This document shows positions 19,633 to 34,810 of a stretch of 64,000 nt of DNA, in pieces. The DNA comes from Salisaeta longa DSM 21114. GTDB taxonomy: Bacteria > Bacteroidota > Rhodothermia > Rhodothermales > Salinibacteraceae. Numbering within the stretch: the stretch's first letter is position 1; every line of letters begins with the position of its first letter. The stretch spans positions 146,005-210,004 of the forward strand of contig NZ_ATTH01000001.1 of the NCBI RefSeq assembly GCF_000419585.1, in the 5' to 3' direction. The notes under the pieces were generated by a model that ran no database searches, was not told the origin of the DNA, and was given only the letters and a program-made list of their open reading frames with translations. The position numbers were made by a program, and so were the translations under genes.

Positions 19633-20808
19633 ATGCGCATTGACCTTGTATTTCCGGCCCTTCCGCCGGCCCTCGACGGCATTGGCGACTATACCGCTCG
19701 TTTGGGGCAAACGCTGGCATCGGCGTGTGCCGTGCACATCTGGACGGCCCAAGACGACGCCCGCGCGGTGCCAGGCGCGCTGCTGCACCTGGTGCCGTCT
19801 ATGGCCAGCAGCCGCGGCCTGTCGCACCTGGTTGAGGGCATTGCCGCCGATCCGCCCGATGTGCTTGTGGTGCAATACAACCCTTTCAGCTACGGGCGTT
19901 GGGGACTGAACCTGCACCTAGCGCCGGCCCTGCGTCGCCTCAAAGCGCGCTGCCCGCGCCTGCACCTGGCGCTGATGGTGCACGAGCCGTTCGTGCGAGT
20001 GGAAAACTGGCGGTTCGCCGTCTTTACCACGTGGCAGCGGCTTCAGTTTTGGCGGCTCATGCGCACGGCCGACACCGCGTTCGTCTCTATTGCGCCCTGG
20101 GTGGATCGCTTTCAGCCCTGGTTTCCGGCAACCCCCATCCACCACTTGCCCGTCGGGTCGAACATGCCGCACGTGCCGTGCAAACGGGCCACCATGCGCG
20201 ACCGCTTGATGATTGCGCCCCAGGCGACGGTGCTGGGGGTGTTTGGCAGCGCCCACCCGTCGCGACTGCTTGGGATGGTGAACGCCGCGGCCGCACGGCT
20301 GGCGCGTCAGGAACTGCAGCCGGTGGTGCTGTACATAGGCGCCGCGGGCGCAGCCGTGCAAGACGCGTTGACTGCCGATGTGCGCCTGATCGACGCCGGC
20401 GCGCTTCCGGGCGACGACGTGTCGCGGCACCTGGCGGCTGTAGACGTTTATCTCGCGCCGTTTGCCGATGGCGTGTCGACGCGCCGCGGCTCCTTTTTGG
20501 TCGGGCTGCAGCACGGCCTGCCCACCGTAAGCACCGTAGGACGCGACACCGACGCCATGCTGCGCACGGCCAACGGCACGGCCTTCGACCTGGTGCCCGA
20601 CACCGACGCGGAGGCCTTTGCGAAGGCCGTTGAGCGCCTGGTGCGCTCTGTAGCGCTTCAAGAAAAACGCCGAAGCGCCGCCTCCGCCTTCTACAGCAGC
20701 CACTTCACGTGGCCGCGCATTGCGGCACGCCTGCTAGACAAGCTGCCGCTGCCCACACCCTCCGTCCCTTCGATAGCGCCGACGTGCGTCTCGGCTCTTG
20801 CCCCATGA
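19633..20808 (+). CDS. Glycosyltransferase (GT-B fold, first of polysaccharide locus)
   Basis: 391-residue GT-B glycosyltransferase. The N-terminal half has MRIDLVFPALPPALDGIGDYTARLGQ, DVLVVQYNPFSYG and MVHEPFV; the C-terminal nucleotide-sugar half has VLGVFGSAHPSRLL and VDVYLAPFADGVSTRRGSFLVGLQHGLPTVST. It lacks the full EX7E motif of GT4. It is first of five genes joined by 4-base overlaps (except one spacing of 2 bases), so it probably starts a polysaccharide operon. Confidence 0.8.
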   Translation: MRIDLVFPALPPALDGIGDYTARLGQTLASACAVHIWTAQDDARAVPGALLHLVPSMASSRGLSHLVEGIAADPPDVLVVQYNPFSYGRWGLNLHLAPALRRLKARCPRLHLALMVHEPFVRVENWRFAVFTTWQRLQFWRLMRTADTAFVSIAPWVDRFQPWFPATPIHHLPVGSNMPHVPCKRATMRDRLMIAPQATVLGVFGSAHPSRLLGMVNAAAARLARQELQPVVLYIGAAGAAVQDALTADVRLIDAGALPGDDVSRHLAAVDVYLAPFADGVSTRRGSFLVGLQHGLPTVSTVGRDTDAMLRTANGTAFDLVPDTDAEAFAKAVERLVRSVALQEKRRSAASAFYSSHFTWPRIAARLLDKLPLPTPSVPSIAPTCVSALAP

Positions 20809-22238
20809 TCGCTACCCCCTCTACACGGCTGTCGCGGCTTACGTTCGATCGCTCGCGGGCTACGCTGCTCGCGGGCGGCGTAATGGTATTTGCCACGTGC
20901 ATCCTCGCGGCCATCTTTTACACGCCCTTTGTCTTTCAGCTCAACTATCTCATCCCGATGGTTGCGCTCGGCATCGGCGGGTGGCTCTACCTCACCAACC
21001 CAATGCTGTATCTGGGATTTACGTGGTGGATGTGGTTTATCGCGGCGCTGCTGCGCCGCTTGGTGGACTGGCAGGTGGGGTACTACAACCCGCTCAGCTA
21101 CATCATCCTCACGCCGTACCTGCTGTCGGGGCTTTCGCTCTTCACCATGCTGCGCATCCTGCCGCGCCTGCTTTCGTCGGCCTTTCAGCCGTATCTGCTG
21201 GCCCTGGCCGGGGTGCTGTATGGCTACCTGATTGGCATTGTGCGCGTGGGCCTGTTCGCAGCTACGTTTGGCTTGTTGGAGTGGATTGTGCCGCTGCTGC
21301 TGAGCATTCACCTGGTCGCGGAGTGGAAGCGTTACCCGATGTACCGAAGCGTGGTGCGGTCAACGTTTTTGTGGGGCGCGCTGTTGATGGGGGCCTACGG
21401 CATCTGGCAATACTTTGCGATTGCGCCCTGGGATGCGATGTGGATGACCTGGTCGGGGATGAACTCCATTGGCCAGCCCGAGCCGCTCATGGTACGCGTG
21501 TTTAGCACGCTCAACTCGCCCGGGCCGTACGCGGTGGTGATGATGGCGGGCCTCGTGCTGTTGTTTGACGGCCGCGGCTCACTCGCGCTCCTGGCCATGG
21601 CGCCGGGCTACGTGGGCTTTATGCTGTCGCTGGTGCGCAGCGCCTGGGGCGGCTGGATTGTGGCGCTGGGATACGCCGTCTACCGCCTGCATGGCAAGCA
21701 CCGCATGCGCCTGCTCGTATTGCTGGTGCTGGGCATATTGGCCGGCTTGCCCATGCTCATGCGCGGCGCCATGTCCGAGCAGGTCGGCGCGCGCGTCGAG
21801 TCGATGGGCAACCTGACCTCCGACAACAGCTTTGACGCCCGCACCGATCTCTACGCCATCGCGACCGTGCAGGCCCTCACGACGCCGTTAGGGCTGGGCG
21901 TTGGCAGCATGGGCAAAGCCACCAAGCTGGAAAGCGGTGAGGTCTACAGCTTCGATAGCGGCCTTTTGGCCATCCCGTACACCCTGGGGTGGCTGGGCAC
22001 CGTGTTTTACGTGGGCGGGCTCGGACTCTTGCTGTGGCGCGTGCTGCGCGTGTCCTCGCGCGAGACCGATCCGTTTGCGGTGTTGGCCATCGCGGTGGCG
22101 GTGGCCATGGTCGCGCAGCTTGTCTTTTCCAACCAACTGACGGGTCTGGGGGGCATGCTCATCTGGAGCTTTTTGGCCATGGCGCAGGCCTCACGATACT
22201 ATTACGACGCCTACGATCCGGCACCGGAGGAGGGCTAA
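20805..22238 (+). CDS. O-antigen polymerase/ligase-like membrane protein
   Basis: 477-residue multipass protein with about ten hydrophobic segments, resembling Wzy/WaaL/O-antigen ligase family proteins. The large periplasmic segment carries SEQVGARVESMGNLTSDNSFDARTDLYAIAT, the Wzy-C-type region, and the downstream LGLGVGSMGK. ATG 20805 overlaps the upstream stop in ATGA. Such proteins polymerise or ligate undecaprenyl-linked glycans. No flippase (wzx) or initiating phosphosugar transferase is in the window. Confidence 0.75.
   Translation: MIATPSTRLSRLTFDRSRATLLAGGVMVFATCILAAIFYTPFVFQLNYLIPMVALGIGGWLYLTNPMLYLGFTWWMWFIAALLRRLVDWQVGYYNPLSYIILTPYLLSGLSLFTMLRILPRLLSSAFQPYLLALAGVLYGYLIGIVRVGLFAATFGLLEWIVPLLLSIHLVAEWKRYPMYRSVVRSTFLWGALLMGAYGIWQYFAIAPWDAMWMTWSGMNSIGQPEPLMVRVFSTLNSPGPYAVVMMAGLVLLFDGRGSLALLAMAPGYVGFMLSLVRSAWGGWIVALGYAVYRLHGKHRMRLLVLLVLGILAGLPMLMRGAMSEQVGARVESMGNLTSDNSFDARTDLYAIATVQALTTPLGLGVGSMGKATKLESGEVYSFDSGLLAIPYTLGWLGTVFYVGGLGLLLWRVLRVSSRETDPFAVLAIAVAVAMVAQLVFSNQLTGLGGMLIWSFLAMAQASRYYYDAYDPAPEEG
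22226..22233 (+). promoter_or_regulatory. Shine-Dalgarno site of the third polysaccharide gene
   Basis: GGAGGAGG ends seven bases before the ATG at 22241, inside the last codons of the preceding gene. It is one of only a few clear SD sequences in the window. Confidence 0.6.
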
Positions 22239-22240
22239 CC

Positions 22241-23371
22241 ATGCATATTGCCATTGTAACGCCTCGTATTGTGACGGGCGACGGGCAGGGTCGCGTAAAT
22301 CATGCCATCGCCACGGGGGCACTGGCCCGCGGGCACACCCTTTTGTGCGTGACGGCAGCGCTCGACCCGGCGCTCGCGGCACACCCATCGGTCACATGGG
22401 CCCGCTGCTCCATCGACCGCTACCCCACCGCCTTGCTCAACGAGCTGGTGTTTGCCGCCCGCAGTGCCCACTGCCTGCACACGGCCACGCCGCGCCCCGA
22501 TGCGGTGCTGGCCAACGGTGCCATCACGTGGGCGCCAAGCGATCTGAACGCGGCGCACTTTGTACACAGCGGCTGGAAGCAGTCGCCCTACGCCGCCCTC
22601 GGGCAGCAGGGCCTGCACGGCTGGTATCAGTCGGCCTATACGGCCCTCAACGCCTGGTGGGAGCGCCGGGCGTTCCGGCGCGCGCACCGGGTTGTGGCGG
22701 TGTCTGAGCGGGTGAAGGCCGAGCTCCTCGCGGCCGGCGTGCGCACACCCATCGACGTCATTCCCAACGGCGTCGACCTGTCGACTTTCCACCCGGGGCC
22801 GGCCGACCGGGCGGCGCTCGGGTTGCCAACGGGCCCGCTCGGCGTGTTCATTGGCGATTTGCGCACGCCGCGGAAAAACCTCGATACGGTGCTGCGCGCC
22901 CTCACCCGTCAGCCCGCGCTTCACCTGGCCGTGGCCGGGCGGGTGGAGGGCAGCCCCTACCCGGCGCTGGCCGAACGGCTGGGCGTCGCATCGCGGGTGC
23001 ACTTTCTCGGGTTCCGCTCGGATGTCGACGCGCTCCTGCGGGCGGCCGACGTGTGCGTGTGCCCGTCCCGCTACGAACCGTTCTCGCTGGTGGTGCTGGA
23101 GGCCCTGGCCTCGGGCTGCCCGGTGGTGACGAGCGCGCCGGTAGGGGCTGCGCCGCTGGTGCAGGGGGCGGGCCGCGTGGTGACGGATCCCGAAGATGAT
23201 GAGGCGCTGGCCGAGGCCCTTGCGGCGGTCTTGGAGCGGGCGCCGGAGTATGCCGCGCAGGCCCGCCAAACCGCCGAAAAGCATCCGTGGTCGATCGTTG
23301 CCGCGCAGTACCTCGACCGTCTCGAACACCTTGCCGTTTCGTCCGACGCGCTCATTCCCACCTACGCATGA
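22241..23371 (+). CDS. Glycosyltransferase family 4-like
   Basis: 376-residue GT-B/GT4 enzyme. N-terminal acceptor half MHIAIVTPRIVTGDGQGRVNHAIATGAL; C-terminal donor half with VIPNGVDLSTFHP, IGDLRTPRKNLDTVL and the EX7E motif in EPFSLVVLEALASGCPVV. Retaining transfer of a sugar from a nucleotide donor to a growing glycan is expected. It follows the polymerase-like gene by two bases and overlaps the next gene by four (ATGA). Confidence 0.9.
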   Translation: MHIAIVTPRIVTGDGQGRVNHAIATGALARGHTLLCVTAALDPALAAHPSVTWARCSIDRYPTALLNELVFAARSAHCLHTATPRPDAVLANGAITWAPSDLNAAHFVHSGWKQSPYAALGQQGLHGWYQSAYTALNAWWERRAFRRAHRVVAVSERVKAELLAAGVRTPIDVIPNGVDLSTFHPGPADRAALGLPTGPLGVFIGDLRTPRKNLDTVLRALTRQPALHLAVAGRVEGSPYPALAERLGVASRVHFLGFRSDVDALLRAADVCVCPSRYEPFSLVVLEALASGCPVVTSAPVGAAPLVQGAGRVVTDPEDDEALAEALAAVLERAPEYAAQARQTAEKHPWSIVAAQYLDRLEHLAVSSDALIPTYA

Positions 23372-24543
23372 TGACCCTCGTTTCTTCTGTTGCGCCGGCG
23401 CCACCGGCCACACTGCACGCCCTCCACATCGGCATGAACTGGTTGCCCGAGCGCCCCGGCGGCGGGCTGGATCGGATGGTGCACGGATTGATGACGCACC
23501 TGCCGGAGGCCGGTGTAGCGACCCGCGGACTGGTAACGGGCCGCCCTGCGATCGACGACCACACGGTGCGGGCGTTTGCGCGCCCCGAGGCGCCTTTGCC
23601 GCAGCGCCTGTGGGCCGTCCGGCAGGCGTTTCAAGCCGCCGCTGCCCACCACTCTCCCGACGTCGTCGCGGCGCACTTTGCGCTGTACGCGGCCCCGCTG
23701 CTCCCCTCCCTTCAGGCGCCGCTGGTGATGCACTTTCACGGCCCGTGGGCCGCGGAAGCCCAGGCCGAGGGCGAAGGAACGTGGGGCGTGGCTTTCAAGC
23801 GCCGCATCGAGCAGATGGTGTACCGCCGTGCCGCGGCGTTCATCGTGCTTTCGGACGCCTTCCGCGATGTGCTGCACACCAGCTACGGCGTTCCGTACCC
23901 GCGCATTCACGTGGTGCCGGGCGGCGTCGCGGCCGATCAGTTTGCTGTAGACGGCCCGCCGCGGGCTGCGCGCCATCGGCTGGGGTGGCCCACCGACCGG
24001 CCGATCGTGCTGAGCGTGCGGCGGCTCGCGCATCGCATGGGCCTCGAACGCCTCATCGATGCGGTTGAGCACGTCCGTACCCGGGTGCCCGATGTGCTGG
24101 TGTACATCGCTGGCAAAGGGCCGCTGCAGCAGGTGCTTGAGGCTCGCATCGCCGCCCGCGGCTTGTCCGACCACATTCGCCTCCTGGGCTTCGTGCCCGA
24201 TGCCGACCTGCCCTACGCCTACCGCGCCGCCACCCTTTCGGTGGTCCCCACCGTGTCGCTGGAGGGGTTCGGCCTGATCACGGTGGAGTCGATGGCTGCG
24301 GGCACGCCGGTCCTCGTTACGCCTGTTGGCGGATTGCCCGAGACCGTGCGCGGCCTCGACCCGGGGCTGGTGCTGCCCGATGCGTCGACGGGGGCGCTCG
24401 CCGACGGACTTGCCCACGCGCTGCAACACCCGCACCTTCTGCCCACCGCTGCTGCATGCCAGCAGCACGTGCGGCGCACCTTCGACTGGCCGGTTATCGC
24501 CCGGCGCACCCGCTCTGTGTACGAACAAGTTCTTTCGTCATGA
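23368..24543 (+). CDS. Glycosyltransferase family 4-like
   Basis: 391-residue GT4 enzyme with a probable cytoplasmic-membrane-associated N-terminal domain (WLPERPGGGLDRMVHGLMTHL), VMHFHGPWAAEA, VPGGVAADQF, RLAHRMGLERLIDAV and the EX7E signature in EGFGLITVESMAAGTPVLVTPVGG. Start codon ATG 23368 lies in the 4-base overlap with the upstream gene. The sugar donor cannot be told from sequence. Confidence 0.9.
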   Translation: MMTLVSSVAPAPPATLHALHIGMNWLPERPGGGLDRMVHGLMTHLPEAGVATRGLVTGRPAIDDHTVRAFARPEAPLPQRLWAVRQAFQAAAAHHSPDVVAAHFALYAAPLLPSLQAPLVMHFHGPWAAEAQAEGEGTWGVAFKRRIEQMVYRRAAAFIVLSDAFRDVLHTSYGVPYPRIHVVPGGVAADQFAVDGPPRAARHRLGWPTDRPIVLSVRRLAHRMGLERLIDAVEHVRTRVPDVLVYIAGKGPLQQVLEARIAARGLSDHIRLLGFVPDADLPYAYRAATLSVVPTVSLEGFGLITVESMAAGTPVLVTPVGGLPETVRGLDPGLVLPDASTGALADGLAHALQHPHLLPTAAACQQHVRRTFDWPVIARRTRSVYEQVLSS

Positions 24544-25778
24544 CACCACGCATCCTCTTTCTGGATCAATCCGGAGCCCTGGGCGGGGCCGAGCTGTACC
24601 TGCTCGATGTCGCGCGGGCCTTTCGGGCCACAAGCCGGGTCCTCTTGTTCGATGACGGGCCGTTCCGCGATCGCCTCGCCGGCGCCCACATTTCTGTGCG
24701 CGTGGCCCACGCCGGGGCGGCCCTTCACCAGGTGCGCAAGCGCGGTGCGGTGGGCGCGGCGCTTCGAGTGGTTCCGGCATTGGTGCAGCTTGTGCGCACC
24801 GTGGCGCGCGAGGCGCAAGCGTACGATGTCATCGTTGCCAACACGCAGAAGGCCCTGCTCGTGGGCGCTCTGGCCGGATGGTGGAGCGACCGCCCGGTGG
24901 TGTGGAACCTTCACGACCTCCTGACCGCCGACCACTTTACGTTGCTGCATCGGACGCTGGCGGTGCAGGCAGCCAACTGGGGCACGGTGCGCGTCATTGC
25001 CAACTCCGAGGCGAGCAAGCAGGCGTTTCGGGCAGCGGGCGGACGAACGCCCGTGCAGGTGGTGTACAATGGCATCGACCCGGCGCCGTTTGATGCCGTT
25101 ACCGATGCCGAAGCCACCGCGTGCCGCGCGCAATTGGGCCTTCCGGCGCACGCGCCCGTCGTCGGCGTGTTTAGTCGCCTGGCCGAGTGGAAGGGACAGC
25201 ATGTGCTGGTGGATGCCTTGCGGGATGTGCCCGAGGCCCATGCGCTCCTCGTGGGCGACGCGCTCTTTGGGGGCGACACGTCGTATCGCGACGTGCTCCA
25301 GGCGCGCATCCGGGCGCACGGCCTCAGCGAACGGGTCCACCTGCTTGGGTTTCGGGACGACATCCCCACGCTGATGAAGGCGTGCGACATCATTGCGCAC
25401 ACCTCGGTACAGGCCGAGCCGTTCGGCCGCGTCATCGTGGAGGGGATGCTCGCCAACCGGCCCGTGGTGGCCACGGCCGCCGGCGGGGCCCTCGAAATTG
25501 TTGACGACGCCCAGACCGGCTGGCTGGTGCCCCCAAACGATGCCCACGCCCTGGCCGACCGTCTGCAGTGCATCGTGGCCCACCCACGCGCCGCCGCACA
25601 GGTGGCGGCCCGCGGACAAGCGCACGCCCGCCACGCGTTTTCTATCGAGCGCATGGTGCAGGGCGTGCGGCGCAGCCTGCCGGGCCCTGCAACGGGCGAT
25701 AGGTTGCGGCTCGTCTTACAAGACGCCCCGGCACACCCTGCGCCTCCGCGCCGCCAACGGACGGCGCAGAGCGATTAA
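24540..25778 (+). CDS. Glycosyltransferase family 4-like
   Basis: 412-residue GT4 enzyme, last of the cluster. It has ILFLDQSGALGGAELYLLDVARAF (glycine-rich acceptor-domain start), VVWNLHDLL, VVYNGIDPAPF, FSRLAEWKGQHVLVDAL and EPFGRVIVEGMLANRPVVATAAGG (EX7E). ATG 24540 overlaps the previous stop by four bases. The C-terminus has about 35 extra basic, Pro-rich residues after the fold. Confidence 0.9.
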   Translation: MTPRILFLDQSGALGGAELYLLDVARAFRATSRVLLFDDGPFRDRLAGAHISVRVAHAGAALHQVRKRGAVGAALRVVPALVQLVRTVAREAQAYDVIVANTQKALLVGALAGWWSDRPVVWNLHDLLTADHFTLLHRTLAVQAANWGTVRVIANSEASKQAFRAAGGRTPVQVVYNGIDPAPFDAVTDAEATACRAQLGLPAHAPVVGVFSRLAEWKGQHVLVDALRDVPEAHALLVGDALFGGDTSYRDVLQARIRAHGLSERVHLLGFRDDIPTLMKACDIIAHTSVQAEPFGRVIVEGMLANRPVVATAAGGALEIVDDAQTGWLVPPNDAHALADRLQCIVAHPRAAAQVAARGQAHARHAFSIERMVQGVRRSLPGPATGDRLRLVLQDAPAHPAPPRRQRTAQSD

Positions 25779-26136
25779 CAAAAATGTCACAGGATTGGCG
25801 CGGCGCAAAAATGCAATGCGCGTGGGATGATTTCACCGGCGCGGCTGGCGGCCGCCCGTCAGCCAACCGGCGCGGGCGCGGTTCGCTGCAGTAAATCTGT
25901 AGACCTATGGAGCATTGATACCGCCGCCCACACGAGGGACGGGCCGGCTGGGCAAAACCTCCGGGTAATTTTGGATGTGTGGGGCAGAATACTCCGTTAC
26001 CGGCTCGTTGCGGCCGTCTGCTGGCGAAGCGCTCGCCTGCGCGGTGCTGCGGATTGGCGCGGTCCTTGGGTGCAACCCTGCATGATGCCACAGCGCATCG
26101 TTGCACCGTGTATTCCACGAAATTAGGAGATTGCGT
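25779..26136 (+). other. 358-base leader between polysaccharide operon and cytochrome gene
   Basis: No convincing gene. It holds direct repeats ACCGGCGCGG (25835-25844 and 25866-25875) around a hairpin with arms GGCTG (25843-25847) and CAGCC (25860-25864). A second candidate hairpin pairs CCGGGTAA (25961-25968) with TTACCGG (25997-26003), the arm being one bulged base off perfect. The left part (25952-25968) reads GCAAAACCTCCGGGTAA, which loosely resembles the 3-prime core of class I cyclic-di-GMP (GEMM) riboswitches (GCAAAGCCTCCGGCCTAA), but the upstream half of that fold is not convincing. It may be a structured 5-prime leader of the gene that follows. Confidence 0.35.
26125..26130 (+). promoter_or_regulatory. 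Shine-Dalgarno site of the cytochrome-PA14 gene
   Basis: AGGAGA lies six bases before ATG 26137 and decides that start over any upstream in-frame codon. Confidence 0.65.
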
Positions 26137-29100
26137 ATGTTCAGCGGGGGATTGTTTGCATCAGGAGGAACGATTGCACTGCTCATCGGGGGGATGAGCG
26201 TGCTGGGTGGCGTGGCGTGGTGGACCTGGCGGCGCTTGTCGGGCACCGGACAGCTGGCGCTGCTGATGGGCGGCGCCGTGGTGACGTTGTTATTTGCGGG
26301 GGCGTTTCGGCTCTCGTGGGCACCGGCTTCGAACACCGTCACCCTTCCGATTGAGGTCATTGGTCCCGACGGCTACACCGTCGATGTGCAGGTGAACGCG
26401 TCGGACGTGTCCAACGTGGAGGCGCTGTACTTGCGTGCCTACTCCATTGGCTACCCGTACTGGTACGCCGAACCGCGCGGCTACACCGTTGACAAGGCCT
26501 CCGTGCGCCTTAACAACGGCCCGTGGGTCGACATCAACAACGCAACCGTTGACTGCATCGACTCGCAGGCGTCTCTGCGCTGCGTGGATGGGCCGTTGCA
26601 CACCATTCGGTTTACCGTGCCCATTGAAGCGTTGGGTGCCCCCAACGACGGTGCAAACGTGATCAGCTTTCGGTTCAACTATGCGCATCCGTCGGGCGAG
26701 ATGGGCGACCCCTCGACGGGCTACCGCATCCTCGACATCGAATTTCGGACCGCAAGCGGGGCCAATGCGATTGACAACACCACCTTTCGGTGGGACGACC
26801 CGGGGGCATGGGGCGCGCCCGACGGCTTTGGCTCGGCGGCCGACGTGCGCGCGGGCGAGGAGCTGTGGCACCAGCGCAGCCTCCTGATTGACGGCTGGGA
26901 CGGCGAGAACATATGGGCGTCGTGCGCCGATTGCCATGTCGACAACGGCTACGACCTGGCGTACTTCGCCTTCTCCAACAAGTCGATCGTCCAGCGGTCG
27001 CGCTTCCACGGCCTCTCCGAGCGGCAAGGAAAGCAGATCGCGGCATACATTCGTTCGCTCAAGATCAAAACCACCGACGGCCGCACCATCGACCCGCCGG
27101 GCCGCCCGTGGCATCCGCCGTATCAGCCCGGTCCCACCGCCGCGGGCTCGCGTCCCGAGGGCGCGCCGCGCACCCAAGGCCAGGGCTTCGATGCGCTTGA
27201 CCCGGTGCACTGGGCCGCGGGCGCCGGGCTCGACTGGGTGCTCGACTCCAACGATGCCATGAAGCGCCACGTCTTTCCGAATGGCATCACGCCGGAGACG
27301 TATCCCATATCGGGGGACATCAACATGCGGCAGCTGCCGGTGAACATCCAGATGCCCGACTGGAACGAGTGGCTGCCGGTGCACCACCCGGTGGACGTGT
27401 GGGGCGATCAGTTTCGCAATCACGAGGTCTGGGATCACTACGCAAACGACGTGCCCGACCTCATCTATAAGGCGAAGAACTACAACGGACGCCTGGGGAA
27501 AGCCGAAGTCGCCGTGGAGCGGCTGTGGAGCGGGTTAGAAGTGGGCCGCGACGAGTTTAAGGGCAAAGATGTACCCGCGCCCTACGATGGCTATGCCGCC
27601 AACCTCTCGCGGATGCAGTGGGCGCTGACGAAGTCGTTTGAGGTGATGCACACGAACCACTTCGAGCACCGCGCGAAGGAATTGTATGGAGCCAGCGCCG
27701 AGCCGCTGCAGTGGTTCTCGTCGTCGCGCATCTTGTTCGACCAGGCGCCGCACATCCAGGAGCTCACGCGGCGCAGCGATCCGAACATGCGCAACATCAA
27801 GGGGGAGCGCTCGGGGGTTGCGTGGAAGTTCTTTACGACCGCGTGGTACCAGCACCAGCTCACGCTCAATCCGGGGTCGGCCATTAGCACCGACATCAAC
27901 CCGATGGATTGGCGCTACCACTACATGTTTATGGCCGGCGTGAAGAATCCCGAGCCGCACGCGTGGCGCTACATCGCGTCGTTCCTCAAGATTTTGTACA
28001 TCGCCGACAAGATGCCCGAGGGGCGCATGGACGAGGAGGCGGAAGGGTGGTACCACCGGCACACGTCGCCCTCGCTCATCGACCTGCAGCACTTCTGGCC
28101 CAACCACTCGCTGGAAGGCGGCATCGGATCGGACGCGTACCGCCGCGTGCTCAACGTGGCGATGTCGCTATACCGCGAAGGCATGGCGCCGGAGGATCCG
28201 AACAACTGGGCGCGCCGCACGGGCGATGCCGGCCTGGAACCCGAATCGTTCGACCCGGAGCGCATTTACGGCGGCATCGGCAACGACGTTACGGCTGCCA
28301 ATCACTGGTACACGAGCCTCCGCAACTTTGGGGAGTACGGGGTGGCGTATTCGCTGCTGCGCCCCATGGCCGAGTGGGCTGAGGAGGCCTGGCCCAAGGG
28401 CGACTGGCTGGACCTGATTCGGCCCTACCGCGACAATCCGGGCGTAGATGCCGGGAACGGTTCGCCGAACACCGCGCCGGCGGTGCAATTTGCGCAACCA
28501 ACCGACGGGGCGACGTTCACCGCGCCGGCCACGATTGGGCTGGAGGTGCAAGCCAACGATGCCGACGGCTCGGTGGCGTCCATCGAGGTGTACGCGGGCG
28601 CCACCCGCATCGCAGCGTCTGGGTCCGGAAGCCTCAGCGACGCCTGGTCGGATGTGGGCGCCGGGACGTACACGCTGCGCGCGGTGGCCACCGACGATGA
28701 CGGCGAGACGACCGAAACGTCGGTGACGATCACTGTGGAAGCGGCCGACGGGTCGCTAAGCGGCACGGGCGTGCGGTACGCCGCCTACACCGGCGCGTGG
28801 GAGGCGCTGCCCGATTTTGGCAGCCTGGCCCCGGCCCAAACCGGCACGACGAACAACTTCACGCTGAACGTGCAGCCGCGCGACAACAACTTTGCGCTCC
28901 GCTACACCAGCTACCTGAAGGTGCCCGCGCAGGGGACGTACACGTTCACCATTGCATCCGACGACGGCAGCCGCTTGGCTATCGACGGGGCGGTGGTGGC
29001 CGATAATGACGGCATCCACGGCGTAAAGGAAGCCTCGGGTACGGTTGAGCTGTCGGCGGGCTTTCATGCCATCACCGTGGCTTACTTTGAGGCCACGCAA

Positions 29101-29691
29101 GGGCAAGCGCTCGCGGTCGAGTGGGCGGGCCCCGGCATCACCCAGCAGCCCATCCCCGACGCCCGCTTGTACCTGAGCCGTCCCGACGCGGTCACGCAGT
29201 CGGTCGACCTGCAGGCCGGATGGAACCTGGTGTCGCTCGCCCTTCGCCCCGACGCCCCTGCTCTTGCGACGCTGCTGCAGGGCACCGGCGTGGCCATTGT
29301 AAAGGACGAAGCCGGTCGCCTGTACAGCCCAGCCTACGGGCTGGAGGCCTTTACAGCGTGGGATCCCTCCGAAAGCTACCTGCTGTATGCGGCGCAAGCC
29401 GCAACCCTCACCGTGCAGGGCACGGCGCTCCCCACGGATGCGCCCATTCCGCTCACCAAAGGCTGGAACTTGGTACCGTACCTGCCCGCGAGCGATTTGC
29501 CGGTGGCCGAAGCGTTTGCATCGCTGGGCGACGCCCTGGTGGTTGTGGAAGACCCCGCAGGCAATTTGTACCGTCCGGGCGCGGTCAACGACATTGGCAC
29601 CGTGCGCCGGGGCCGCGGCTACAAGGTGTACGTGAATCAGGGCGTCACGCTGACGTATCCTGCAAGCGCCACCACAGCTTCCGCAAATTAG
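26137..29691 (+). CDS. Large membrane-anchored c-type cytochrome with Ig-like and PA14 domains
   Basis: 1184 residues. Two hydrophobic helices at the N-terminus (about 10-31 and 38-60) anchor it; the rest is probably periplasmic or surface exposed. A single heme-c motif CADCH lies at residues 263-267, followed by a class I cytochrome-like helix (GKQIAAYIRSLK). Residues about 320-770 are a Trp/His-rich domain I do not recognise (MPDWNEWLPVHHPVDVWGDQF, WYHRHTSPSLIDLQHFWP). Then comes an Ig-like domain (about 778-868), a PA14 domain (about 876-1005, YTFTIASDDGSRLAIDG) and a tail with two GWNLV repeats near 1029 and 1110. PA14 often binds carbohydrate, and a glycosyltransferase operon lies just upstream. 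An oxidoreductase acting on or anchored to glycan is a guess. Confidence 0.7.
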   Translation: MFSGGLFASGGTIALLIGGMSVLGGVAWWTWRRLSGTGQLALLMGGAVVTLLFAGAFRLSWAPASNTVTLPIEVIGPDGYTVDVQVNASDVSNVEALYLRAYSIGYPYWYAEPRGYTVDKASVRLNNGPWVDINNATVDCIDSQASLRCVDGPLHTIRFTVPIEALGAPNDGANVISFRFNYAHPSGEMGDPSTGYRILDIEFRTASGANAIDNTTFRWDDPGAWGAPDGFGSAADVRAGEELWHQRSLLIDGWDGENIWASCADCHVDNGYDLAYFAFSNKSIVQRSRFHGLSERQGKQIAAYIRSLKIKTTDGRTIDPPGRPWHPPYQPGPTAAGSRPEGAPRTQGQGFDALDPVHWAAGAGLDWVLDSNDAMKRHVFPNGITPETYPISGDINMRQLPVNIQMPDWNEWLPVHHPVDVWGDQFRNHEVWDHYANDVPDLIYKAKNYNGRLGKAEVAVERLWSGLEVGRDEFKGKDVPAPYDGYAANLSRMQWALTKSFEVMHTNHFEHRAKELYGASAEPLQWFSSSRILFDQAPHIQELTRRSDPNMRNIKGERSGVAWKFFTTAWYQHQLTLNPGSAISTDINPMDWRYHYMFMAGVKNPEPHAWRYIASFLKILYIADKMPEGRMDEEAEGWYHRHTSPSLIDLQHFWPNHSLEGGIGSDAYRRVLNVAMSLYREGMAPEDPNNWARRTGDAGLEPESFDPERIYGGIGNDVTAANHWYTSLRNFGEYGVAYSLLRPMAEWAEEAWPKGDWLDLIRPYRDNPGVDAGNGSPNTAPAVQFAQPTDGATFTAPATIGLEVQANDADGSVASIEVYAGATRIAASGSGSLSDAWSDVGAGTYTLRAVATDDDGETTETSVTITVEAADGSLSGTGVRYAAYTGAWEALPDFGSLAPAQTGTTNNFTLNVQPRDNNFALRYTSYLKVPAQGTYTFTIASDDGSRLAIDGAVVADNDGIHGVKEASGTVELSAGFHAITVAYFEATQGQALAVEWAGPGITQQPIPDARLYLSRPDAVTQSVDLQAGWNLVSLALRPDAPALATLLQGTGVAIVKDEAGRLYSPAYGLEAFTAWDPSESYLLYAAQAATLTVQGTALPTDAPIPLTKGWNLVPYLPASDLPVAEAFASLGDALVVVEDPAGNLYRPGAVNDIGTVRRGRGYKVYVNQGVTLTYPASATTASAN

Positions 29692-29698
29692 ACATACG

Positions 29699-32600
29699 CT
29701 AATAGGCATACTCTAGCAAGACGTTGAGCCGCAACGACGACTCGCGGCGTTGCAGACGCAGCAGCATGTAGTTGGTGAGTGAGTACTCAAGCGTCACATC
29801 GGGCGCTTGGGTCTCGCTGTTTTCCAGGTTGCTGATGTTGGTGACGGGCTGTTGCACCGAGACGTAAAACTGCGGCGTAACGTAGCGGCCTACGGTGAAG
29901 TAAGAAGTGCCGCTGGGCTGCACCTGAATGCGCACCACATCGAACCCCAGCCGGCCGGTGGCCAGGTTCTCGACCAACCCGGTCAGCTGTCCGATGGCGA
30001 GTTGGGTGGGCAGGCTCCCCCCCTCGCCGCCCGAGGCGCTGAACAGTTCGTCTGCGGGCTGCCCGGTGGCCAGGTACGAGAGAATATTGCGCGTGCTCAT
30101 GGGCGGATTGGAGCTGAAGGTCAGGTCGAGGTTGTCGGGGCGCCCTTCTACGCTGAGCGTTATGGTTACCTCGGTCGCCTGCACCTCGCGGGCCTGTTTC
30201 TCGTACACCGCGGTAAAGTTGATGTAGGGCGTGGTGGGGTTGCCATTGAAGGTGAGCGTGCCCTCATCGACCTGGAACTGCTGGCCGAACTGGGTGATGG
30301 TGCTCAGCTCGGGCACCACCTCGATGGTGCCAAACACCTGCGCATCGGCCATGGCCTCCTTCTCCATGTCGAGGCGCCCGGTGAGCTGCAAGCGCATCTC
30401 CGGGTTTGACTCGGAGCGCAACCACGTATCGCGCGCAATCTGCACCTGCAAATCCATGGCCAGGGCCTGGTAGGCATCGAACGTGGTGGTATCGGCAGCG
30501 GAGAGCCGTAGCCCGAAGCGCCGTTCAACGGCGAGCAAGTCGGTGCGGCTGAGCTGCACGCTGGCCAGCTCGGTGTTCGTGTTGGTGGCTTCGGCAAAGT
30601 AGATGTCGGCGCTGCGCACGTTCACCTGGCCATCGAGCGCGGGGCGCTGCGTGGTGCCGGTAAGCCGCACGGCGCCATCGATGACCGTGCCGCGATAGGC
30701 CCGCGTGTCGATAGCCAAGAACTCGTTGGCGCGCAGGTCGATGGCATAGGTGCCCAGGGTTAGGTCGGAAAGATTCACGCGGCCATTGCCTTGCAACGTA
30801 CCGCCGTTTGACGTTTGCACGCGCACGGTTTCGACGCGGACCTGCTCCCGGGCAAAGGCGAGCGTGGCGGCTGCATTCCGGTAGCTGAGGTCAAGCGGCA
30901 CGACGTAGGCGCCTCCGTCGCGAAGGCGGGCGGTGCCCGAGAGCTGCGGCGTGTCGAGCGTGCCGCGTATGGATAGGTCGGCCTGCAGCACGCCGCGCAC
31001 ATCGGTCACGAGCGTTGGGTCGAGGAACGGGTCGATCCAGTTCACCGCGAACGCGTCGGCGCGCACGTCAATACGCACCGGCCGCTGCTGAATGGCCACG
31101 GGCTGCGGGGTGCGCAGGCGCAGATCGACGGGCACGCGGCCCGCGGCGTACAACGCGCTGGTGGTGTCGTTTTCTGGGCTTAGCTGGGCATCGAAGGCAA
31201 GGGCAAGGCGGTCGTAGGTCACCTGCGCGGTGCCGCGGCCCACGGGGCGCCCCTCGCTGCGCACGTCAAAGGTCCAGCGGCTGTCGAGTGTGGGGTGAGC
31301 GGCTTGGCCGCTCAGCATCGCATGGCCGGTGAGGGTGCCGCCCAGGCCGGGCTTGCCAAACAGCGCGGCAAAGGGTGCAATGTCGACGGCGTAGGCCGAA
31401 AGCCCCAGGTGCTGCACGCCGTTGAAGTCGAGGCGCCCGTCCACAGACAACTGTTGCTGGTTGTTGGCCAGCAAGAAGTGCTGGACGTAGTAGGCGCTGG
31501 GGCCGATCTCCACTACCGCCGGCTGGGCAAGCTGCCAGGGCGCTTCCGCTAGGCGGAGCGCAAAGGTATCGATGGTGAGGCGCTGCGTAGCCGCCCGCTG
31601 GCGCCACGTACCCGTAACCTCGGCCGAGCGTTCGTCGTCGATCGTTGCAGAAGCGGTGAGCTGCGCGGTCGAATCTTCGTAAGCGAGCGTGGCACGGGCG
31701 GCCCGAAGGCGCTGCGTGGGGAGGGCAAGGTACTGCACCGCGGCGCGCGCTTCTACGGTGGACGTCCACGGAGCCGATGGGGCGTAGCGGCCGGCGACGT
31801 TCAGGTTGACGCGGCCCGCCTGGAACGCGTTGTAGATGGCATTTTCGAGCGTTGCGGTGGCGTCGAAGCGCGGGCGGTCGGCGGTGCCGTATACGTGCGC
31901 GGTCATGCGACCCGTCTCCAAGGTGAGCCGCTGTGCCCCGATCAAGCCGCGCAGCGGTGCAATGTTTTGCAGCGTCGCCTGGAGCGTCAGGTCGCTAACC
32001 TGTGGCGACTGTTGCGTGAGGGCGATCCCGCCGCGGCCCGTGAGGAGCGCGACGTTGGTTTCAGCGCGCAGCGTATCGAGCCGTAAGAGCCCATCGCGCA
32101 GCGCAGCCGCGGCCCGGAGGGAATCGACCCGTAGCTGCTGCAGGCGGCTTCCGTGCACCCACAACTGGGCGGTGGCGGTGGCGGTGGATAGGCGCGTGCC
32201 GCGGCCATCGAAGGTGAGGCGGAGCGTGTCGAGGCGGGCGTGCAGCGTGTCGAGTCCGGCCAGGGCGCCCACGTTCAGCGCCCGCGCATGGACGTGGCCG
32301 CGGTAGGTGGGCTGCGCGGCGGCGGTGCTGAAGCGCGCCTCGGTGGTGAGCCGCCCGTCGCCTGCAAGGCGCAGGCGCCCGGTGGCCGTTCCGGTGCCCC
32401 CGGCGGCGGTAAAGCGAACCGTGCCGTCCAGCACCCGGGCCGTATTGATGGCCGACGTGTCGATGCGCATCGTAGCCTCGGCCGTGAGCGCGGGCCACGA
32501 GAAGCCGCGCAGCGATCCCGTCAGCGACCCCGTGAGGGATGTGTGGAAGTCCGGCTGCCCCGCAAGTGCGCCCGCATCGAGCGAACGAAAGGAGCCTTCG

Positions 32601-34810
32601 GTGAGCGCTGCCGTGGGTACGTCGGCGAAGGGGCGGGCGCGGCCACGCAGGACCAGGGCGCCGGTGGGCGTCTGCAGGCGAGTAGACGCGGTGGCCGCGC
32701 CGTTGGCGAGCGTCGCCGATAGCTGTCCGGTGATAAGCCGCTGAAGGTTGAGGCGCGACGTGTCGAGGCGCACGTCCAGCCGTGCCTGCAAGGCGGGCAG
32801 CGCCGCGCCCCGCAGGTCGCCCCGAAACGTGCCGTTCAGCCGACTGCTTAGCGCGGCGTTCTGGGTGAGCGCGCCCACGTCAATGCGCTGAAACGTGCCG
32901 TCGCGCAGCCGCAGCACGGGCGTAGCAGCAAAGGGCTGGCCGTCCACGCGGGCCGCGAGGCGTCCTTCGTTCAGCAGGGTGCGCACCGTGGCGCGCAGGG
33001 CCCCGGCGTTCAAGGAGAAGCGGCTCAGGAGCGAATCCACCCGAAACGCGCCGTACCGGGCCGTGGGCACCGTCAGTTCTGCCGAAGTGGTAAGCGTCTC
33101 CGGATCAAACCCGCGGCCTTGCGCCTGCAGCGAAGCCGTGAGCAAGCTCTGCGTGGTGTCGTTGACAAGCGCCGCCACATCCACGCGGTCCAGGCGTCCG
33201 GTGGACAAGCGGAATCGTTCGGCCGTGAGGTGGGCATGCCCGGCCAGCTGCAAGGTGCCACGCCCGATCGCCGCGCGCCCCTGCGCATGCAGGCTGTCCG
33301 CCCGCAGCGCGCCCGTGAAGCGACCGTGAGCAATTACGGCGCGGTTGACCTTGGAGCGGGCGAAGCGCAGCGTGGCATCCACAGAATCGGCGCCCGCCCC
33401 CTGCACGCGCACCGAGCCGTTGAGGGCGGTGGTGAGGCCGCCGGCCAAGAGCGCCTGCACGCGTCCGTCGCGCACTTCCGTCTCCAGGTCGTACGTGGGC
33501 CGGTCGGCCAGCGGACGAGCGGTGCCCGCGAAGCGCAGCCGGGCCGCGTTGGTTCGTCCGGCGCCACGCAGCGCCAGCCGCCCCGACGCCCACATTCCAT
33601 CCAGGTGCAGCGTGTCTACCTGAAGCGTCTGGTAGGCCGCATCCCACACCTGAACCCGCGTGGTGCCGCTCAGCGCCCGCCCCGACGGCCCGCGCACATC
33701 CGCCCGTACCGCCACGTTGTACCGGTTTTTGGTTGGATCGGGCGGGCCCAGCAGGCTGGTCGTCAGGCGGCGTACGGTAGCCGTGAGGCGGTACCGCGTG
33801 GTGTCGCCCGTGGCCGCGAGCGCCGTTGCCTGCACCGTGCCGCCATCGCCAAACGTTGCCTCCAGCGAACCGCCAAGGCTATCGGCCGCCCCGGCAACCC
33901 GTGCATCGATCGTCACGCGCTCAGACGGATCGAGGCCCAGCGCAGGGATCAAGGTCGTGAGGTCGCGGAAGGCAAGCGGCGTGGCGCGAAGCGAAGCGTC
34001 GACGTTGTGGACCTGCGGGGCCTGCGCCGAGGGGCGCGCCAGCGTGCCCTGTGCCACCACGTGGCTGTAGGGCGAGCGGAGGCGCAGCGACGCATCGCGC
34101 AGGTGTGTGGCCGAGAGCGCGCCGCCCGCAGAGAGCGTGAGGGTGGTGGTATCCTGGGGCAGGTGGGCCGTAAGCCCGAGCGTGTCGAGCGTCACGGCCA
34201 GCGTCGAATCGTACCGGAGGGCGTGCATGCGCAGCTGGAGGCCGCGCGTCCGCAGCGTCGAGTCGCCGCGGGGGCTATAGAAGTGGGTGGTAACCCGCCC
34301 GTCCGTGAGCGTGGCGGCCTCTACCCAAAACGCAAAGCCGCTCTGCGTCGTGTCGGGGCTGGGCGGCGGCAGGTGCTGCGCCCAGTTCCAGGTGCTGTCG
34401 GCGGTTTGGCGGAAGGTGGCCGTGGGGCGTACCGCGCGCGCTTCGTAGATGTGCACCGTGCCCGCGAGCAGCGGCCAGAGGGCATAGCGGGCGCGGAGGG
34501 TGTCGAGCGTGGCGAGCGGCGCATGTGGCGTCTGCGTGGTGTCGCGCAGGGTAACGCCGGTAAGCTGCAGGCTGCCAACCCACGTGCCCGAAGCGCCGTC
34601 GATGGACAGGGCGGTGCCCGGCAGCGGATTGACGCGCTGCAAGATGGCGCGGGCGGCGCGTGTGGCCACCGCGTCGATCTGAAGGGCAGCCACGAGGACG
34701 CTCACCAGCAGCAACACGGCCAGTGCGGTGCCGCCGACGAGGCGAATCAGGGTGCGAGACCACGACGGCGCAGCCGGCGGGGCCGCGTCATCCACGGAAG
34801 CGTTAGGCAT
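29699..34810 (-). CDS. tamB: TamB-family translocation and assembly module protein (DUF490)
   Basis: 1703 residues: N-terminal membrane helix (about 21-44, LIRLVGGTALAVLLLVSVLVAAL), then very long repetitive beta-rich periplasmic region, and the conserved TamB C-terminal domain (from about 1340; NILSYLATGQPADELF, TGLVENLATGRLGFDVVRI, LLEYAY end). TamB-like proteins span the periplasm and move phospholipid or help insert outer-membrane proteins with a BamA-family partner. No BamA/TamA gene is adjacent. It is convergent with the cytochrome gene, seven bases apart. Start ATG 34810 is the first in frame. Confidence 0.92.
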   Translation of the reverse strand: MPNASVDDAAPPAAPSWSRTLIRLVGGTALAVLLLVSVLVAALQIDAVATRAARAILQRVNPLPGTALSIDGASGTWVGSLQLTGVTLRDTTQTPHAPLATLDTLRARYALWPLLAGTVHIYEARAVRPTATFRQTADSTWNWAQHLPPPSPDTTQSGFAFWVEAATLTDGRVTTHFYSPRGDSTLRTRGLQLRMHALRYDSTLAVTLDTLGLTAHLPQDTTTLTLSAGGALSATHLRDASLRLRSPYSHVVAQGTLARPSAQAPQVHNVDASLRATPLAFRDLTTLIPALGLDPSERVTIDARVAGAADSLGGSLEATFGDGGTVQATALAATGDTTRYRLTATVRRLTTSLLGPPDPTKNRYNVAVRADVRGPSGRALSGTTRVQVWDAAYQTLQVDTLHLDGMWASGRLALRGAGRTNAARLRFAGTARPLADRPTYDLETEVRDGRVQALLAGGLTTALNGSVRVQGAGADSVDATLRFARSKVNRAVIAHGRFTGALRADSLHAQGRAAIGRGTLQLAGHAHLTAERFRLSTGRLDRVDVAALVNDTTQSLLTASLQAQGRGFDPETLTTSAELTVPTARYGAFRVDSLLSRFSLNAGALRATVRTLLNEGRLAARVDGQPFAATPVLRLRDGTFQRIDVGALTQNAALSSRLNGTFRGDLRGAALPALQARLDVRLDTSRLNLQRLITGQLSATLANGAATASTRLQTPTGALVLRGRARPFADVPTAALTEGSFRSLDAGALAGQPDFHTSLTGSLTGSLRGFSWPALTAEATMRIDTSAINTARVLDGTVRFTAAGGTGTATGRLRLAGDGRLTTEARFSTAAAQPTYRGHVHARALNVGALAGLDTLHARLDTLRLTFDGRGTRLSTATATAQLWVHGSRLQQLRVDSLRAAAALRDGLLRLDTLRAETNVALLTGRGGIALTQQSPQVSDLTLQATLQNIAPLRGLIGAQRLTLETGRMTAHVYGTADRPRFDATATLENAIYNAFQAGRVNLNVAGRYAPSAPWTSTVEARAAVQYLALPTQRLRAARATLAYEDSTAQLTASATIDDERSAEVTGTWRQRAATQRLTIDTFALRLAEAPWQLAQPAVVEIGPSAYYVQHFLLANNQQQLSVDGRLDFNGVQHLGLSAYAVDIAPFAALFGKPGLGGTLTGHAMLSGQAAHPTLDSRWTFDVRSEGRPVGRGTAQVTYDRLALAFDAQLSPENDTTSALYAAGRVPVDLRLRTPQPVAIQQRPVRIDVRADAFAVNWIDPFLDPTLVTDVRGVLQADLSIRGTLDTPQLSGTARLRDGGAYVVPLDLSYRNAAATLAFAREQVRVETVRVQTSNGGTLQGNGRVNLSDLTLGTYAIDLRANEFLAIDTRAYRGTVIDGAVRLTGTTQRPALDGQVNVRSADIYFAEATNTNTELASVQLSRTDLLAVERRFGLRLSAADTTTFDAYQALAMDLQVQIARDTWLRSESNPEMRLQLTGRLDMEKEAMADAQVFGTIEVVPELSTITQFGQQFQVDEGTLTFNGNPTTPYINFTAVYEKQAREVQATEVTITLSVEGRPDNLDLTFSSNPPMSTRNILSYLATGQPADELFSASGGEGGSLPTQLAIGQLTGLVENLATGRLGFDVVRIQVQPSGTSYFTVGRYVTPQFYVSVQQPVTNISNLENSETQAPDVTLEYSLTNYMLLRLQRRESSLRLNVLLEYAY

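What the first reader, a model, noticed from the sequence alone, without database searches (positions are those of the whole stretch)
26137..29691. Cytochrome c, Ig-like and PA14 domains in one 1184-residue membrane protein beside a glycan locus
The single CADCH heme motif, a 450-residue Trp/His-rich unrecognised domain, a PA14 domain and two GWNLV tail repeats are directly visible. The combination of an electron-transfer heme with a carbohydrate-type PA14 domain, next to five glycan genes, suggests a surface redox protein linked to polysaccharide. The large central domain is the best candidate for a new family in this window.
Basis: partly seen in the sequence, partly recalled or inferred. 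Interest (0 to 1): 0.6.

Follow-up and report, generated by a model that had tools for sequence, protein, structure and literature searches.

The report
Sugar-binding surface cytochrome, new domain
The gene encodes a large exported protein that joins a sugar-binding-type domain, one heme and a previously undescribed 450-residue helical domain; relatives occur in at least seven bacterial phyla and, in this bacterium's order, sit right behind polysaccharide-making genes, so it is probably a surface redox protein that works on or with a polysaccharide, although no activity has been shown.

Summary
The ORF at 26137-29691 (+) encodes 1184 aa with one CADCH heme site, a Big_7 Ig domain, a PA14 domain and two GWNLV repeats. 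The Trp/His-rich centre (about 313-767) matches nothing in Pfam, NCBIfam or PDB sequences; AlphaFold2 predicts a confident all-helical fold (pLDDT 86, pTM 0.89) without a credible PDB match. At least 153 loci in at least seven phyla encode it, always with one CxxCH. The Ig/PA14/tail part is an interchangeable accessory; relatives carry laminin-G, ricin-B or type IX secretion tails. In Rhodothermales a same-strand GT4 gene lies within 3 kb upstream in 8 of 8 genomes; outside the order this link is absent. It is not PSCyt/PSD-like, not di-heme, and not a general LPMO donor. Best reading: a surface, glycan-associated mono-heme redox protein whose new helical domain holds a substrate or partner site. 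The reaction is inference only.

The parts
26137..29691 (+). Whole ORF, 1184 aa (alternative in-frame TTG start at 26101)
26149..26316 (+). N-terminal hydrophobic region with two stretches (about residues 5-24 and 36-60): membrane anchor or signal peptide, unresolved
   Evidence: hydropathy
26326..26787 (+). CBM-like jelly-roll domain (about residues 64-217)
   Evidence: AlphaFold2; VIA-align Z 5.5-7.6 to BcsB, CBM35/36/6, PL4; 14 of 60 relatives hit Pfam CBM-like
26809..27072 (+). Class-I-like cytochrome c domain (about residues 225-312)
26923..26937 (+). Heme attachment motif CADCH (263-267)
   Evidence: invariant in 60 of 60
27007..27009 (+). H291, candidate second axial heme ligand
   Evidence: invariant in 60 of 60, no conserved Met; Arg in two Rhodothermus paralogues
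27073..28437 (+). New all-helical central domain (about residues 313-767)
28477..28683 (+). Big_7 Ig-like domain (781-849)
28876..29160 (+). PA14 domain, matched part (914-1008)
29188..29679 (+). Duplicated GWNLV tail domain (1018-1181)
   Evidence: the same domain ends many proteins of the order, single copy in the own genome
19561..20808 (+). Glycosyltransferase-like ORF (Glyco_trans_1_4, E 2.4e-7)
20709..22238 (+). Relative of Wzy_C / O-antigen ligase proteins
   Evidence: clusters with a Wzy_C protein of a relative; no direct Pfam hit
21989..23371 (+). GT4 glycosyltransferase
23287..24543 (+). GT4 glycosyltransferase
24456..25778 (+). GT4 glycosyltransferase directly upstream of the cytochrome gene

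Best explanation
It is an exported, probably surface-exposed mono-heme redox protein held next to a polysaccharide by carbohydrate-binding-type modules. Shown by sequence or model: a CBM-like jelly roll, a class-I-like cytochrome c and a new helical domain form one conserved unit; many Bacteroidota relatives end in a type IX secretion tail. Inferred: the heme is His/His ligated (H267, H291); the helical domain carries a substrate or partner site made of its conserved residues (P327-G332, W359, D408, W412, D420, W570, D591, Y594); the heme exchanges electrons with a sugar oxidised at that site or by a partner dehydrogenase. In Rhodothermales the substrate would be the exopolysaccharide made by the adjacent GT4/Wzy genes.
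For: One CxxCH in 78 of 79 fetched ORFs (the other lacks the region). Invariant H291 and strongly conserved aromatic and acidic residues. CBM-like N-terminus. Lectin-type tail modules in relatives: laminin-G, ricin-B, B_lectin, malectin, PA14. Por_Secre_tail in 20 of 57 flanking pieces. Same-strand GT4 gene within 3 kb upstream in 8 of 8 Rhodothermales genomes of five genera, where roughly 3-5% of random positions of the own genome have one that close (one search gives 2.7% from 19 of 29). A GMC dehydrogenase lies on the same strand in Rhodothermus, in L050 and, 39 bp downstream with a sugar-isomerase-like gene and a GH43, in L120; sulfatases lie near in some marine loci. Precedent: the CBM-linked X183 cytochrome of Cellvibrio Cbp2D can pass electrons to an LPMO (PMC8981238).
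Against: No activity, heme stain or binding has been measured. The helical domain shows no known cofactor motif or fold, so a catalytic role is a guess. The window locus has no GMC enzyme beside the gene, and its protein lacks the type IX tail that its Salinivenus relative has. In two Rhodothermus paralogues H291 is Arg. Outside Rhodothermales the neighbours are mixed.
Confidence: 0.45

Rival explanations
1. Electron-transfer scaffold: the helical domain is not catalytic, and the protein only carries electrons between periplasm and outside acceptors while anchored in the capsule.
For: Single class-I-like heme and no known catalytic motif in the helical domain; export features.
Against: Only one heme, so no wire of its own; the helical domain keeps invariant polar and aromatic residues typical of a binding site.
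Confidence: 0.22
2. Electron acceptor of a separate FAD-dependent GMC sugar dehydrogenase, as the mono-heme cytochrome c is for glucoside 3-dehydrogenase.
For: GMC gene on the same strand in seven loci, 39 bp downstream in L120; the best weak PDB profile hits of the heme part include fructose and glucose dehydrogenase cytochrome subunits; precedent in PMC9915066.
Against: No GMC gene in the window locus or in most other loci; the PDB hits are not significant (E 0.02 or worse).
Confidence: 0.15
3. Electron donor to lytic polysaccharide monooxygenases, like X183 of Cbp2D.
For: Similar combination of carbohydrate-binding domain and small cytochrome (PMC8981238).
Against: LPMO_10 is absent from 17 of 18 carrier genomes, the own genome included; the X183 domains of Teredinibacter did not drive an LPMO (PMC10916295).
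Confidence: 0.04
4. Surface adhesin or structural protein in which the heme has no redox role.
For: Many Ig, lectin and PA14 modules; some paralogues have lost H291.
Against: CxxCH and H291 are kept in 60 of 60 sampled members over seven or more phyla.
Confidence: 0.08

Closest known systems
Cbp2D of Cellvibrio japonicus and TERTU_2913/3803 of Teredinibacter turnerae (X183/X132/X158/X122 proteins)
   Same: Large exported proteins joining carbohydrate-binding or jelly-roll modules to small c-type cytochrome domains with an unresolved redox role (PMC8981238, PMC10916295).
   Different: X183 heme is His/Met ligated; here no Met is conserved and a His is invariant. The solved X183 chains do not appear in PDB sequence searches with the core profiles. 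No CBM2, FN3 or YceI domain was found here.
Planctomycete-type PSCyt1/PSD1 and PSD4 (DUF1592) cytochrome proteins
   Same: c-type heme sites fused to large domains of unknown function, often with carbohydrate-binding or Ig modules (general knowledge).
   Different: Most of these proteins have two CxxCH; profile comparison gives probability below 8% restricted to the CxxCH itself, while the control within this family gives 100%.
Cytochrome subunits of FAD-dependent fructose and glucose dehydrogenases
   Same: Weak profile similarity around CxxCH and the last helix (E 0.02-0.4).
   Different: Those carry several hemes per chain and no helical domain like this; similarity is not significant.
Fungal cellobiose dehydrogenase
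   Same: Works-like only: a heme domain fused to a second domain with a carbohydrate-binding function (general knowledge).
   Different: b-type heme, GMC flavoprotein domain; no sequence relation was found.

Membership tests
c-type cytochrome (class I-like) | CxxCH attachment motif | tested here: met
   60 of 60 in A2; 78 of 79 ORFs
c-type cytochrome (class I-like) | Met as second axial ligand | tested here: not met
   no conserved Met in the domain; H291 invariant instead
c-type cytochrome (class I-like) | significant profile or fold match to a known cytochrome | tested here: inconclusive
   best PDB profile hit cytochrome c-552 E 0.016; 1 of 60 members hits Pfam Cytochrom_C at 0.009
c-type cytochrome | covalently bound heme | not testable with these tools
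   needs expression and heme stain
Planctomycete-type PSCyt/PSD proteins | homology to PSD1 or PSD4 domains | tested here: not met
   hhalign probability at most 7.5%, only over CxxCH; no Pfam hit in 60 members
Di-heme peroxidase / MauG / RoxA type | two CxxCH motifs in the chain | tested here: not met
   one CxxCH in every ORF that has the region
CBM-linked X183 cytochromes (Cbp2D type) | membership of the X183 sequence family with His/Met ligation | tested here: inconclusive
   no X183 chain among PDB hits at E 10 and no conserved Met; X183 sequences were not at hand for a direct comparison
LPMO electron donors | an LPMO in the carrier genomes | tested here: not met
   LPMO_10 in 1 of 18 carrier genomes
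PA14 domain proteins | Pfam PF07691 above gathering score | tested here: met
   64.3 bits against 24
Type IX secretion cargo | C-terminal sorting domain | tested here: not met
   absent from the window protein; present in its Salinivenus relative and at 33 other places of the own genome
Known all-helical enzyme folds | fold match of the central domain | tested here: inconclusive
   Foldseek best E 0.66; VIA-align best Z 9.1, rmsd 8.2 over 271 residues, to a designed helical assembly

The most novel reading that the evidence does not exclude
The helical domain is the catalytic part of a new class of heme-coupled extracellular carbohydrate oxidoreductases: it oxidises a polysaccharide held by the CBM-like domain and the fused cytochrome c takes the electrons, as in fungal cellobiose dehydrogenase but with unrelated parts; in Rhodothermales it modifies the cell's own exopolysaccharide.
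Probability: 0.22. Interest if true: 0.8.

Novelty: new variant of a known kind. Interest (0 to 1): 0.5.

Why it matters
Bacterial redox proteins that act on polysaccharides outside the cell are poorly known, and the published work on carbohydrate-linked cytochromes leaves their role open (PMC10916295, PMC12542752). This is a coherent family without a Pfam or NCBIfam model, present in at least seven phyla, with a confident structural model, one heme and a defined set of invariant residues, so its function can be tested directly. In Rhodothermales it is tied to polysaccharide synthesis rather than degradation, which would point to oxidation of the cell's own exopolysaccharide.

Tried and rejected
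PSCyt/PSD membership: fetched PSD1- and PSD4-type proteins from Verrucomicrobia and Acidobacteria genomes and compared profiles; no relation (the first runs, held wrong-strand rows and were redone). LPMO donor: LPMO_10 absent from 17 of 18 carrier genomes. Di-heme enzyme: only one CxxCH. Fold search of the whole core returned only the N-terminal jelly roll. The helical domain alone gave only weak hits, the first ones including alpha/alpha toroids (GCR2, lanthipeptide synthetase CuvL, farnesyltransferase) at E 0.66 or worse, not used as evidence. A Pfam scan of 106 neighbours found no conserved partner outside Rhodothermales. Literature search for the motif GRPWNPPYQPGP found nothing; searches for PA14 with cytochrome c and exopolysaccharide, and for type IX secreted cytochromes, gave nothing to the point. 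The Caballeronia plasmid relative carries no annotation.

Full report
What is there. The ORF 26137-29691 (+) is intact and encodes 1184 residues. Pfam recognises only Big_7 (781-849) and PA14 (914-1008); NCBIfam nothing useful. There is one CxxCH (CADCH, 263-267) and a duplicated tail with GWNLV at 1028 and 1109. Two hydrophobic stretches lie in the first 60 residues.

The real conserved unit. Searches of relatives' genomes and of 84,980 species genomes show that residues about 60-775 travel as one unit, while the Ig/PA14/GWNLV part varies. At least 153 loci encode the unit. The 79 loci fetched come from Rhodothermota/Bacteroidota, Acidobacteriota, Myxococcota, Pseudomonadota, Verrucomicrobiota, Bdellovibrionota and Chloroflexota (the last one MAG). 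A tree places the window protein with Salinivenus and Longimonas (SH-aLRT 96 and 99); Bacteroidota and Pseudomonadota are scattered over the tree, which fits horizontal transfer but does not prove it. Exactly one CxxCH is present in 78 of the 79 ORFs; the other, L062, lacks the region in its ORF. Between two Salinivenus copies dN is 0.0076 and dS 0.059, so the protein is under purifying selection.

Anatomy of the unit. AlphaFold2 with 60 relatives gives pLDDT 86.7 and pTM 0.90. Residues 64-217 form a jelly roll resembling BcsB, CBM35/36/6 and the PL4 rhamnogalacturonan lyase domain (Z 5.5-7.6, rmsd 2.7-4.2 over 93-121 residues); 14 of 60 relatives hit the Pfam family CBM-like (PL4 domain III) by sequence. 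Z below 8 can mean only a common arrangement, but the sequence hits make a carbohydrate-binding type likely. Residues 225-312 form a class-I-like cytochrome c; C263, C266, H267 and H291 are invariant in 60 of 60 sequences and no Met is conserved, so bis-His ligation is likely but unproven. In two Rhodothermus paralogues H291 is Arg. Residues 313-767 form an all-helical domain (alone: pLDDT 86.2, pTM 0.89). Conserved positions include P327, Q330, P331, G332, W359, G362, G364, D408, W412, D420, W570, D591 and Y594; H417 is kept in 59 of 60 but is Tyr in Rhodothermus paralogues. No member matches a Pfam family credibly in this domain, none matches NCBIfam there, and its profile finds no PDB sequence at E 10. 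Foldseek and VIA-align give no credible relative; this does not show that the fold is new.

Accessory parts and location. Flanking parts of relatives carry Big_7, laminin-G, ricin-B, B_lectin, malectin and, in 20 of 57 pieces, the type IX secretion sorting domain. The Salinivenus relative has the same Big_7, PA14 and GWNLV parts plus the sorting domain; the window protein stops before it, eight bases from the convergent TamB-like gene. The own genome has 33 sorting-domain places, so a type IX system is likely, but this protein may instead be held by its N-terminus.

Neighbourhood. The five upstream genes are four GT4-type genes and a Wzy_C relative, all on the same strand. In all eight Rhodothermales genomes checked (five genera) a GT4 domain lies within 3 kb upstream on the same strand. 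On the own main contig 2.7% of random positions have a listed GT4 that close; as 19 of 29 were listed, the true figure is somewhat higher. The link is thus conserved within the order. Outside it, 106 neighbours show no shared partner, and the few GT4 genes found lie on the opposite strand. Some marine loci have sulfatases on the same strand; Rhodothermus, L050 and L120 have a GMC dehydrogenase, which in L120 is 39 bp downstream and followed by a sugar-isomerase-like gene, with a GH43 on the other side. These contexts all concern carbohydrates, but the sulfatase and GMC cases are few and were not tested against chance.

What it is not. It is unrelated by profile comparison to PSCyt/PSD1 and PSD4 cytochrome proteins, while the control within the family gives 100%. 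It has no second heme site. LPMO_10 genes are absent from 17 of 18 carrier genomes, the own one included, so LPMO donation is not its general role.

How it most likely works. Shown: a protein of exported type with a CBM-like domain, one heme site and a conserved helical domain, genetically tied to polysaccharide synthesis in this order. Inferred: a His/His heme, a substrate or partner site in the helical domain, and electron exchange with the oxidation of a surface glycan. The closest functional analogues are the carbohydrate-linked cytochromes Cbp2D and TERTU_2913, whose role is also unresolved (PMC8981238, PMC10916295, PMC12542752), and the mono-heme cytochrome c that accepts electrons from glucoside 3-dehydrogenase (PMC9915066). 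I give the surface glycan redox reading 0.45, with the version in which the helical domain is itself the catalyst as the novel case at 0.22.

Novelty. Carbohydrate-linked extracellular cytochromes are a known kind; the helical domain and its pairing with this cytochrome form a family without a model in Pfam or NCBIfam. It is therefore rated a new variant of a known kind, which would rise to categorically new only if catalysis by the helical domain were shown.

Noticed in passing
L053, L055, L056, L127 (Rhodothermus): Two tandem copies of the core gene follow a run of GT4 genes and precede GMC and DRL-type oxidoreductases; one copy in two species has Arg in place of H291.
   Followed up: partly
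L046:7252-8340 (-), also L047, L048, L051, L054, L066: A roughly 360-residue protein with a type IX sorting tail is encoded directly downstream of the cytochrome gene in six Rhodothermales loci but not in the window.
   Followed up: partly
window 29188-29679: The duplicated GWNLV tail domain is single copy in this genome but ends many large proteins of the order; it has no Pfam family and may be a surface-retention module.
   Followed up: partly
window 29699-34810 (-): A TamB-like gene converges on the cytochrome gene with a gap of a few bases.
   Followed up: no
L080, L085, L097, L099, L109, L115 (Acidobacteriota): A roughly 160-residue and a roughly 400-residue gene recur next to the core gene (the L080 copies have no Pfam match), often with a large kinase-TPR protein nearby.
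   Followed up: no
L074, L096, L101, L123, L126, L069: Sulfatase genes lie on the same strand as the core gene in marine and verrucomicrobial loci, which suggests sulfated polysaccharides there.
   Followed up: partly
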